Of a stretch of 64,000 bases of DNA, positions 14,084 through 17,053 are shown in pieces. Position 1 is the stretch's first letter. Every line of letters begins with the position of its first letter. The stretch comes from Methanomicrobium sp. W14 (GTDB lineage: Archaea > Halobacteriota > Methanomicrobia > Methanomicrobiales > Methanomicrobiaceae). A program made the position numbers and the translations under genes. The DNA lies in NCBI RefSeq assembly GCF_017875315.1, contig NZ_JAGGMM010000002.1:558001-622000 (forward strand). Direction: 5' to 3'. The notes under the pieces are model-generated. The model searched no databases. It was not told the origin of the DNA and saw only the letters and a program-made list of their open reading frames with translations.

Positions 14084-14437
14084 AAAATAAACCCTCCCTA
14101 TTAAACTTTTTTAATGAATTGTTTTTTTATTTTTTTAATGCGTCTTGAGAATCCTTTGTGCTCCTGTAAACTGGACCTGCTTATTTTTCTGTTAAGGATT
14201 CAAAGTTTGATTTCAGAACTTGGAAATTCTCATACCTGATGTGGCGGAGAACGGTAAACGCTTCTTTGAAAAGGATACGATTTTAATGAATCCCCGGGTC
14301 TTATGTGCAAAATGCCGGTTATCTGATATGAAGTTAATCAGATTAAATTTATCAAATAAATAAGCTTATTTTTTGATTTAACGCTCAAATTTCAGGCAAA
14401 AAAATTTATCTTATGTGGCAACAATATGCTATAACTG
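14084..14437. other. AT-rich gap with a T-tract terminator and a downstream promoter
   Basis: T-runs at 14108-14138 probably end the chemoreceptor transcript. A TATA-like sequence at 14402-14412 sits about 30 bases before ATG 14438, implying a nearly leaderless transcript for the next gene. No coding sequence or RNA gene was recognised between them. Confidence 0.4.
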
Positions 14438-15133
14438 ATGACAGAGATTAGTGAAAATACAGAGCCTGTATCTGTAATGCAGGGTTTTGCCGACCTTGAC
14501 CTTACCCGGCCAAAAGCTGGGTCACCAGTTGCTCACTGCATGGAGATGGTTGAAACTGCCATTAGGGAAAACAGCGGAAAATTCACACGTGATTTGCTTT
14601 ACAAAAACCTTCCTGTCCAGATGAAGCTTCCACGCAGGATTATGAGCAGTGTTTATGAGCAGATAATTGATTTTTACCAGGAGTCCGGGAAGATCTCTTT
14701 TGACAGAATCGGTCATGTCTGTTGGGTTTATGACCCCGAAACCGTTTCATTCTACAAAAAAAATGATAAGCTGAAGTTTTTCGGCAGAGATGCTTTGGAT
14801 TCGGTTTTCTTTGGAAGTGAAGACATCGTTTCGGTGTACCGGGACATGATTACCTCTTCGAGCATTGAAGAGCAAAACGGTCTGAAATACATGCAGGACG
14901 CAATAAAGACTCTTGAAGAACACATGTTTTCAGGAGAACTAATTCCGAGAAGTGTCATACCAAGGAAGTATGAAAATGTATACGGGTCGCTGAATGTATG
15001 GAAATTAAACATGACTCACTCGTGGAAACTTATCTACAGTATTGCAGCTGATGACGATGAAAAAATCCTGATTATTGACGACTGCCTGAACAATAAAGAC
15101 TATGAAAGGCTGTTTAAACCTTTAGTCATTTAA
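14438..15133 (+). CDS. Winged-helix-like protein with a RelE/ParE toxin-like C-terminal domain
   Basis: A 231-residue protein. The C-terminal third (about 160-231) follows the archaeal RelE-like toxin pattern: a helix (DAIKTLEEHMFSGELIP), then IPRKYENVYGSLNVWKLNM, HSWKLIYSIA and IIDDCLNNKDYERLF, matching the family order of LWR.RL..gWRLiYti....iLe..dHKdYeR.F. The usual final H-K-D-Y histidine is N here (NNKDYERLF). The N-terminal part (about 25-105) looks like a helix-turn-helix or winged-helix domain (LPRRIMSSVYEQIIDFYQESGKISFDRIGHVCWVYD). No antitoxin gene neighbours it, so this is either a solitary or domesticated toxin, or a self-contained unit. A TATA box 30 bases upstream suggests it is transcribed alone. 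Assignment rests on pattern only. Confidence 0.6.
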   Translation: MTEISENTEPVSVMQGFADLDLTRPKAGSPVAHCMEMVETAIRENSGKFTRDLLYKNLPVQMKLPRRIMSSVYEQIIDFYQESGKISFDRIGHVCWVYDPETVSFYKKNDKLKFFGRDALDSVFFGSEDIVSVYRDMITSSSIEEQNGLKYMQDAIKTLEEHMFSGELIPRSVIPRKYENVYGSLNVWKLNMTHSWKLIYSIAADDDEKILIIDDCLNNKDYERLFKPLVI

Positions 15134-15262: not shown

Positions 15263-15733
15263 TTATTTGCATGTACACCCTTTGTTGCTTTCGCAGGCGC
15301 AACCGTCACTGTCTCTGTCCAGATCGTGAACATCATCACCTGTGGCTGAGAGGCAGTATTCGTAGCATTTTTGAGCTGAAGACCAGTCTTTGAAGTCATC
15401 ACAGTTGTAGATATTTCCTGAGCAGGAGCAGACAGCAGATGAAGAATCTGTTTTGGAGGGGGATGGTGTTTGAGTCGCAGTTTTTGTGGGGTTTATCGTT
15501 TTCGTTGGTGTGGGAGTTTTTGAAGGTGTCGGTGTTTTTGCCGGTGTTTCCGTCATTGATGCAATTGTTGCCTTAATAGTCTCAAGTTCGGTTTCAATTG
15601 GTGTTGAGGATTTTGTTTCCTCAATTGTTACAGAAGTCCGGGAATTTGTATTTTTAGAAGAAGTGCAGCCTGTAAAGATAATACCGGTAGTAATTAAAAT
15701 TAGGCAAAGGAAAATGGCTATCTCTTTTGTCAT
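15263..15733 (-). CDS. Lipoprotein with an Excalibur-type calcium-binding domain
   Basis: A secreted lipoprotein of about 156 residues. It opens with a signal peptide and lipobox (ITTGIIFTGCTSSKN, cysteine about residue 23), then a Thr/Pro-rich spacer of repeated PTPSKTPTPTKT-like units (about 65-95), typical of archaeal cell-surface linkers. The C terminus (about 105-150) fits the Excalibur motif: YNCDDFKDWSSAQKCYEYC followed by HDLDRDSDGCACES, the DxDxDGxxCE calcium loop, with several cysteines that may pair. The domain is mainly known from secreted proteins and nucleases; here it stands alone. ATG 15733 is chosen over a start three codons upstream. Function unknown. Confidence 0.75.
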   Translation of the reverse strand: MTKEIAIFLCLILITTGIIFTGCTSSKNTNSRTSVTIEETKSSTPIETELETIKATIASMTETPAKTPTPSKTPTPTKTINPTKTATQTPSPSKTDSSSAVCSCSGNIYNCDDFKDWSSAQKCYEYCLSATGDDVHDLDRDSDGCACESNKGCTCK

Positions 15734-15962
15734 GATGTGCAAATACGCATACTATACATAAAAAATTATTCCCATTTTTTTTTGTTATGAAGTAAACCCT
15801 GTGGTGATTAAAAAATTATTCCTAAATACGGCGAATTTGTCTTATTGTAACCTTAAATCTAATTAAAATAAAATAATCTATACTAAAACATCTGTCTGCT
15901 CTTTAGAATAGATCTAGTTAAAAACGATATCTATATGACATAATTGTTTTAATCCTGATATT

Positions 15963-16223: not shown

Positions 16224-16980
16224 AGTGTGTAAATTTAGCTACTGATTCTCTCTCTCTCTCAAATTTATGTTGCAAAAATATAATTTTTATTTATATATTG
16301 GAAAATCCAGAAGAATAAATAATATCTCTATAATTTTTTATGAGTAATTAGGCAATAATAAGATAATATCTGATATAATTTTTAGACATTCCTGCATATA
16401 TACTTCTAAAAAGCGTGAAGTGGTAAAACATTAGAAACCCAGATATCCTGTTCTATCGGATTTCAACATTTATACTTTTTATTTTGTGTCATGCAGAGAT
16501 ATGTCAGATTATGATTCAGGCATTAAAAAAAGTATTTCGAGAGCTTTATTTGGTTAAAGTAGCGGGGTCTACCAGGAGTACTATAGCTATAATTAAAATA
16601 ACTGCAAAAATAAGCACAAACCACATCCTCAACTCTTTTATGTTTTTATACAGGTCTTTCATTTGATTTCATCTTTCTTTGTATTATAATTGGGTATAGA
16701 TGTATATACCAATATGTCTGAGTTTATTAAAGTGGTTGGATATATGCAAATATTTTTTTTAGATAAAAAGTCCGGGAAATCTTTAAATCACTTTCAATAG
16801 CCCGTGTTTCTGCTTTTATCTTCAATCAGCCTTGATATTAAAACCATTAAAGAAATATTTTTTAGAACCTGCCTTTTTGCAAGAAGTCCATGCTTAATTT
16901 ACGGTGGAACTTATGTTACAGCCAAAATCATTGCCAGAATTGTATATAAAAAGTATAAAAAAGCTGAATTTCAGGAAAAG
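16224..16980. other. AT-rich gap around a possible small membrane-protein gene
   Basis: It contains a short CT dinucleotide run (16246-16259), the 38-codon minus-strand gene listed separately at 16546-16662, and otherwise low-complexity AT-rich sequence. An open frame at 16804-17007 runs into the tRNA gene and is not believed. I see no insertion sequence ends or other RNA genes. Confidence 0.4.
16546..16662 (-). CDS. Small single-span membrane protein (38 residues)
   Basis: A short frame encoding a charged, amphipathic N terminus (MKDLYKNIKELRMW) followed by one strong hydrophobic span (FVLIFAVILIIAIVLLV, about residues 15-31) and a short polar tail (DPATLTK). The layout, positive inside then a membrane helix, is that of a bitopic small protein. 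On the minus strand a TATA-like ATTATAATAC lies about 15-25 bases before the ATG, and there is no strong SD, so the transcript would be leaderless or nearly so. It lies in a gene-poor stretch. Support is by composition only and there is no family match. Confidence 0.4.
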   Translation of the reverse strand: MKDLYKNIKELRMWFVLIFAVILIIAIVLLVDPATLTK

Positions 16981-17053
16981 CGCCCCCAACAGGACTCGAA
17001 CCTGTGACATTCTGGTTAACAGCCAGACACTCTACCAACTGAGTTATGGAGGC
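16981..17053 (-). tRNA. tRNA-Asn (GTT)
   Basis: On the minus strand a 73-base cloverleaf can be folded. The acceptor stem GCCTCCA pairs with TGGGGGC, with discriminator G; the D arm contains AGTTGGTAGAG; the anticodon stem-loop CTGGCTGTTAACCAG carries GTT for asparagine; and the T arm has GGTTCGAGTCC. The 3' CCA is not encoded. A TATA-like TTTATTGG about 33-40 bases upstream (near 17087-17093) fits an archaeal tRNA promoter. No intron is visible. Confidence 0.96.

What the first reader, a model, noticed from the sequence alone, without database searches (positions are those of the whole stretch)
14438..15133. Solitary fusion of a DNA-binding-like domain to a RelE/ParE-type toxin fold
The C-terminal 70 residues match the archaeal RelE-like order up to a final NNKDYERLF, while residues 25-105 look like a winged helix. 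Type II toxins usually sit beside a separate antitoxin; here there is none within 300 bases on either side, and the promoter is its own. This could be a toxin with a built-in neutralising DNA-binding domain, or a retired toxin now used as a regulator. It lies in a gene-poor accessory stretch.
Basis: partly seen in the sequence, partly recalled or inferred. Interest (0 to 1): 0.62.

Follow-up and report, generated by a model that had tools for sequence, protein, structure and literature searches.

The report
Fused, disarmed archaeal toxin-antitoxin gene
In a methanogenic archaeon, the antitoxin and toxin genes of a toxin-antitoxin pair common in archaea have merged into one gene whose toxin half has lost its invariant putative active-site residues; the gene is nevertheless kept intact in two species, so it looks like a retired toxin system reused for another job.

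Summary
The ORF at 14438-15133 is real. Elsewhere its halves are two adjacent genes: a ~90-residue winged-helix antitoxin candidate (351 relatives found) and a ~110-residue RelE/YoeB/ParE-type toxin, usually joined by ATGA. So no antitoxin gene is missing: residues 25-114 are the antitoxin. The same genome also carries one intact two-gene copy and one with a frameshifted toxin.

The fusion was found in two species of the genus, at the same chromosomal position, and in no other of 232 genomes of the order. Both halves form single clades. Codon-position bias and absence of stops show purifying selection on both.

Both fusion proteins share changes at residues invariant in 50 two-gene toxins: Arg to Lys (aligned with the RelE/YoeB catalytic Arg), Glu to Asp, Trp lost, final Tyr lost; also His (49/50) to Asn. 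Both lost the Tyr-Gln-Thr invariant in 83 antitoxins, and the palindrome GTTATATA-N4-TATATAAC found upstream of 75 of 78 two-gene loci.

Best reading: a toxin-antitoxin operon fused once, was disarmed, lost autoregulation, and is kept as a non-toxic two-domain protein, probably a DNA-binding regulator. Fold, changes and selection are shown; the new role is inferred. Fused toxin-antitoxin genes are a known kind; this is a new variant.

The parts
14438..15133 (+). Single-gene fusion of wHTH antitoxin domain and RelE/YoeB-like toxin domain (231 aa)
   Evidence: ORF; homologues; model
14398..14412 (+). Probable archaeal BRE/TATA-type promoter element (A-rich then TTTATCTT) about 26-40 bases before the ATG; a similar A-rich/TTTTAT stretch precedes the orthologue
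   Evidence: sequence directly; not tested as a promoter
14438..14509 (+). N-terminal extension, residues 1-24, absent from two-gene antitoxins, poorly conserved
14510..14779 (+). Winged-helix antitoxin-derived domain, residues 25-114
14609..14626 (+). Six-residue insertion (LPVQMK, residues 58-63) before the recognition helix, present only in the two fusions
14645..14653 (+). Residues 70-72 (SSV), replacing the Tyr-Gln-Thr that is invariant (83/83) at the start of the recognition helix of two-gene antitoxins; NTM in the orthologue
14780..14800 (+). Linker, residues 115-121, where two-gene relatives have the stop/start overlap ATGA; no identity between the two fusions
14801..15121 (+). RelE/YoeB/ParE-fold toxin-derived domain, residues 122-228
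15026..15028 (+). Lys197, in place of the Arg invariant in two-gene toxins (50/50); that Arg aligns with the RLVY/RLIY Arg of RelE and YoeB
15080..15085 (+). Asp215-Cys216, in place of invariant Glu-Trp (50/50 each); Asp-Tyr in the orthologue
15092..15094 (+). Asn219, in place of near-invariant His (49/50), the likely general acid; Asn in the orthologue too
   Evidence: catalytic role by analogy with YoeB His83
15119..15121 (+). Pro228, in place of the invariant C-terminal Tyr (50/50); Asp in the orthologue
14288..14437 (+). Upstream region lacking the palindromic operator GTTATATA-N4-TATATAAC typical of the two-gene operons (best match 7 mismatches)

Best explanation
The gene is the product of one fusion of an ancestral two-gene type II-like toxin-antitoxin operon (autoregulating winged-helix antitoxin, then a RelE/YoeB-type toxin) in an ancestor of two species of this methanogen genus. 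After fusion the toxin half lost its invariant putative active-site residues. The antitoxin half lost its invariant recognition-helix motif and the promoter lost the ancestral palindromic operator. Purifying selection kept both folds. The protein is therefore most likely a non-toxic, domesticated two-domain protein: a winged helix with changed DNA specificity, carrying a dead RelE-type domain as a docking or oligomerisation module, much as RelE acts as co-repressor of RelB. Shown: architecture, predicted fold, origin, synteny, residue and operator losses, selection. Inferred: absence of toxicity, and a regulatory role.
For: Halves occur as adjacent, mostly ATGA-overlapping genes across archaea. 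The same genome has an intact two-gene copy, C1:495301-495875. The orthologous fusion in G003 is 44% identical and lies in a syntenic block. Both halves of the two fusions form single clades (UFBoot/SH-aLRT 100/99 and 99/98). Residue losses are shared by both fusions: Arg197Lys, Glu215Asp, Trp216Cys/Tyr, His219Asn, Tyr228Pro/Asp against 49-50 of 50 two-gene toxins. Tyr-Gln-Thr, 83/83 in antitoxins, is lost in both. The operator is present in 75/78 antitoxin-family loci (0.4% expected from shuffles) and, as a variant, in the three nearest two-gene loci, and is absent from both fusions. Codon-position differences 0.37/0.32/0.60 (p about 1e-9) with no stop, against about 7-10 stops expected under drift. 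In YoeB, Arg65, His83 and Tyr84 are needed for activity (PMC3814384). RelE as co-repressor of RelB: abstract of PMC2812701.
Against: The active-site mapping of His219 and Tyr228 rests on position at the C-terminal end, not on a solved structure. Arg to Lys and Glu to Asp are conservative. ParE-type toxins act without the RNase residues, so a non-RNase toxicity is not excluded. No target DNA or expression data exist. Only two fusion sequences were found.
Confidence: 0.63

Rival explanations
1. A live mono-gene toxin-antitoxin module: the winged-helix half holds an active toxin half in check until released, for example by proteolysis of the linker.
For: Fused BECR-fold toxin-antitoxin genes are known (195 listed in PMC11980606). 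The toxin fold and core residues are kept.
Against: Five positions (four invariant, one 49/50, in two-gene toxins), including the aligned catalytic Arg and the likely general-acid His, are changed in both fusions. The autoregulatory operator is gone.
Confidence: 0.12
2. A protective decoy or anti-addiction protein: it binds and neutralises the toxin of the intact paralogous pair in the same genome (C1:495561-495875), or joins its antitoxin, without acting on DNA.
For: An intact paralogous pair and a copy with a frameshifted toxin coexist in the genome. DNA-recognition and active-site residues are lost while the folds are kept.
Against: The fusion is only about 35-49% identical to these paralogues, so cross-binding is uncertain. 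No interaction data.
Confidence: 0.17
3. A decaying relic with no function.
For: Relatives often lose the toxin gene next to a kept antitoxin gene. The window copy has a long branch in the toxin tree (1.25).
Against: Intact over 231 codons in two diverged species, with strong third-position bias in both halves and saturated dS.
Confidence: 0.08

Closest known systems
Fused toxin-antitoxin mono-gene modules of the RelE/ParE (BECR-fold) superfamily (YefM-YoeB, ParD-ParE, HigB-HigA, BrnT-BrnA, gp49-HTH; Gerdes 2025, PMC11980606)
   Same: A DNA-binding antitoxin domain and a BECR-fold toxin domain in one polypeptide, derived from a two-gene module; antitoxin first, as in YefM-YoeB and ParD-ParE.
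   Different: The antitoxin is a winged-helix family without a Pfam model, the host is archaeal, and the toxin half has lost the residues invariant in its two-gene relatives. The word 'winged' does not occur in the main text of that paper.
YefM-YoeB / RelBE type II toxin-antitoxin systems
   Same: The C-terminal domain has the YoeB/RelE fold; the two-gene relatives have antitoxin-toxin gene order, ATGA overlap and a palindromic operator.
   Different: The winged-helix antitoxin is unlike YefM/Phd or the RHH fold of RelB; here one gene, no such operator, catalytic Arg and likely His replaced.
Archaeal RelE partners in Makarova 2009 (PMC2701414): MJ1172/RHH and COG1753/RHH
   Same: RelE-type toxins of methanogens with small DNA-binding antitoxins.
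   Different: Those antitoxins are predicted ribbon-helix-helix proteins; this one is predicted as a winged helix.

Membership tests
RelE/ParE (BECR-fold) toxin superfamily (C-terminal domain) | BECR fold: N-terminal helices, then an antiparallel sheet and a C-terminal helix | tested here: met
   Model mb82cfd1bfe93; 6n90 Z 9.2, YoeB 2a6r Z 8.5, ParE 8c24 Z 9.1
RelE/ParE (BECR-fold) toxin superfamily (C-terminal domain) | Sequence match to a Pfam toxin family | tested here: inconclusive
   The fusion itself has no toxin match; 29 of 39 two-gene homologues match ParE_toxin PF05016 and 25 match YoeB_toxin at E up to 0.1 (best about 1e-5)
YoeB/RelE-type mRNA interferase (active) | Catalytic Arg of the RLxY motif | tested here: not met
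   Lys in both fusions, Arg in 50/50 two-gene toxins; that Arg aligns with the YoeB/RelE Arg
YoeB/RelE-type mRNA interferase (active) | C-terminal general acid His and terminal Tyr | tested here: not met
   Asn and Pro/Asp in the fusions; His 49/50 and Tyr 50/50 in two-gene toxins. Equivalence to YoeB His83/Tyr84 is inferred
Type II toxin-antitoxin module (two genes) | Adjacent antitoxin and toxin genes | tested here: not met
   One ORF; met by the relatives
Type II toxin-antitoxin module (two genes) | Autoregulatory operator in the promoter | tested here: not met
   The palindrome of 75/78 relatives is absent (best 7 mismatches); a different operator is not excluded
Type II toxin-antitoxin module (two genes) | Toxin arrests growth and antitoxin neutralises it | not testable with these tools
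   Needs expression experiments, for the two-gene relatives as well
Fused toxin-antitoxin mono-gene (Gerdes 2025) | Antitoxin and BECR-fold toxin domains in one polypeptide | tested here: met
   Both profiles hit the same ORF in the window and in G003 only

The most novel reading that the evidence does not exclude
A widespread and, as far as these libraries show, unnamed archaeal toxin-antitoxin family (winged-helix antitoxin, YoeB/ParE-like toxin, conserved GTTATATA-N4-TATATAAC operator) gave rise in one genus to a fused, catalytically dead protein that now works as a regulator or guard in trans, with rewiring of active site, recognition helix and promoter together.
Probability: 0.35. Interest if true: 0.62.

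Novelty: new variant of a known kind. Interest (0 to 1): 0.5.

Why it matters
It is a clear natural record of how an addiction module can be tamed: an intact two-gene paralogue and a paralogue with a frameshifted toxin are still in the same genome, and the fused version shows shared loss of the putative active site, DNA-recognition residues and operator while staying under selection. It also exposes a wide archaeal toxin-antitoxin family with a strongly conserved operator, whose antitoxin has no Pfam model and which could be tested directly.

Tried and rejected
A single-protein scan of genome contigs found nothing; alignment-based search and whole-genome search did. A first combined alignment (A5) put antitoxins onto the toxin half and was discarded; A7, with two in-frame pairs read through the stop as bridges, aligned correctly and was used for the model. 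Pfam, NCBIfam, PHROGs and PADLOC gave no family for the fusion above cut-offs; PADLOC gave a weak CARF-RelE match (E 2e-4) for the two-gene toxin, taken as fold-level only. PDB sequence search with the antitoxin profile found nothing. A scan of viral contigs found no relative. dS is saturated, so dN/dS could not be given as a number; codon-position bias was used instead. Operator-like sites across the own genome are no commoner than control (37 against 49), apart from those before the two two-gene copies, so no regulon could be proposed. Sequencing error as the cause of the fusion is excluded by the independent orthologue. No remnant was found downstream of the kor genes in three other members of the genus.

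Full report
Observation. The ORF 14438-15133 (+, ATG, 231 aa) exists as described. Pfam and NCBIfam give no family. An AlphaFold2 model made with an alignment of relatives has mean pLDDT 86.6 and pTM 0.81. It has a winged helix (helices 30-44, 51-56, 66-83; strands 86-88, 93-96; helix 100-108) and a RelE-type domain (strand 123-125, helices 128-139 and 143-161, strands 187-191, 196-205, 208-218, helix 219-226). Structure comparison matches the C-terminal part to YoeB/ParE/RelE toxins (6n90 Z 9.2, rmsd 2.2 A over 82 residues; 2a6r 8.5; 8c24 9.1) and the N-terminal part to many winged helices. The Foldseek E-values alone are weak (best 0.014). The fold assignment rests on the agreement of the top rows, the secondary-structure order, and the Pfam matches of homologues to ParE_toxin and YoeB_toxin (29 and 25 of 39; best E about 1e-5).

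What the two halves are. In related genomes the halves are separate neighbouring genes. The same genome carries such a pair at C1:495301-495875, and a second at C1:347411-347995 whose toxin is frameshifted in a run of nine T. A scan with the antitoxin alignment found 351 relatives in genome contigs. Of the best 80 loci, 50 have an intact toxin immediately downstream, 34 of them with the ATGA overlap, and none is fused. They come from Methanomicrobiales, Methanosarcinales/ANME-2, Methanoperedens, Thermoplasmata and several DPANN lineages. Several other loci keep the antitoxin with a decayed toxin. That the pair is a working toxin-antitoxin system is inferred from fold, gene order, overlap and operator; it was not tested.

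The fusion is old enough to be meaningful. A second fusion (44% identity, same domain limits) is in G003, same genus. The block upstream of it (kor genes, chemotaxis protein) is collinear with window 1.8-14.1 kb, so the two are orthologues at one locus. Among 232 genomes of the order, 69 have the family but only these two have the fusion. Both halves of the two fusions are single clades (UFBoot/SH-aLRT 100/99 for the toxin half, 99/98 for the antitoxin half), which fits one fusion event.

Selection. Between the two fusions, differences per codon position are 0.37, 0.32, 0.60 (chi-square p about 1e-9; toxin half alone 4e-7, antitoxin half 0.003), dN is about 0.4 in each half and dS is saturated. 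Random change of this size would bring about 7-10 stop codons. Both halves are thus constrained.

What was lost. Against 50 two-gene toxins, both fusions changed Arg197 to Lys, Glu215 to Asp, Trp216 to Cys/Tyr, His219 to Asn and the last Tyr (228) to Pro/Asp; these positions are 50/50, 50/50, 50/50, 49/50 and 50/50 in the two-gene set. The Arg aligns with the Arg of the RLIY/RLVY motif of solved YoeB and RelE chains. In YoeB, Arg65 stabilises the transition state, His83 is the general acid and Tyr84 is required (PMC3814384). Equivalence of His219 and Tyr222 or Tyr228 with YoeB His83/Tyr84 is an inference from position. Core residues (Phe125, Gly166, Pro170, Asn186, Trp188, Trp196, Leu198, Tyr200, Phe226) are kept in the window protein. 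In the antitoxin half, Tyr-Gln-Thr at the start of the third helix, invariant in 83 sequences, is SSV and NTM in the two fusions, preceded by a six-residue insertion, while Pro65, Met69, Ser83, Lys85, Ile86 and Trp96 are kept.

Operator. Upstream of the antitoxin genes a palindrome GTTATATA-N4-TATATAAC lies over the presumed core promoter, with at most three mismatches in 75 of 78 loci; shuffled sequences give 0.4%. The three nearest two-gene loci have a variant of the ATTATATA-N4-TATATAAT type (2-3 mismatches). The fusions have nothing similar (7 and 6 mismatches, no better than shuffles). The two-gene family is thus predicted to be autoregulated, and the fusion has left that circuit.

Mechanism. 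The most economical account: a small insertion or deletion at the ATGA junction joined the reading frames; the toxin lost catalysis; the antitoxin domain was freed from its old operator; the product was retained for a new task, most likely as a DNA-binding regulator in which the dead toxin domain serves as docking or oligomerisation surface. The last step is inference. A decoy role against the paralogous toxin is the main rival. A live mono-gene toxin-antitoxin is less likely, decay least likely.

Relation to known systems. Fused BECR-fold toxin-antitoxin genes are known: Gerdes 2025 lists 195 in a dozen combinations (PMC11980606). Archaeal RelE partners described by Makarova 2009 are ribbon-helix-helix proteins (PMC2701414). 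I found no description of the winged-helix/RelE pair or of a fused dead version in the papers I could search, which is a limited search. Verdict: a new variant of a known kind, of moderate interest; the underlying two-gene family with its operator is the more broadly useful by-product.

Noticed in passing
L003/L004, L055-L134 (archaeal loci), upstream of the antitoxin gene: A strongly conserved palindrome GTTATATA-N4-TATATAAC overlaps the presumed promoter of the winged-helix antitoxin/RelE operons in 75 of 78 loci, including DPANN archaea.
   Followed up: yes
L002:1746-1780 (G000:C1, about 347665-347700): A second two-gene copy in the same genome has its toxin frameshifted in a run of nine T just after the start codon, with the rest of the toxin well preserved: recent loss, sequencing error or a phase-variable tract.
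   Followed up: partly
L055, L058, L067, L068, L071, L075, L076, L088, L098, L104: Many Methanomicrobiales genomes keep the antitoxin gene beside a missing or decayed toxin, suggesting frequent disarmament of this family.
   Followed up: partly
window 15263-15742 (-): Opposite-strand ORF with a lipoprotein-like start and a Thr/Pro-rich stretch followed by a Cys-rich C-terminus; no Pfam match.
   Followed up: no
window 16980-17053 (-): tRNA-Asn gene (anticodon GTT) 1.8 kb downstream of the fusion gene; the stretch between them was not compared across species, and a role as integration site was not examined.
   Followed up: no
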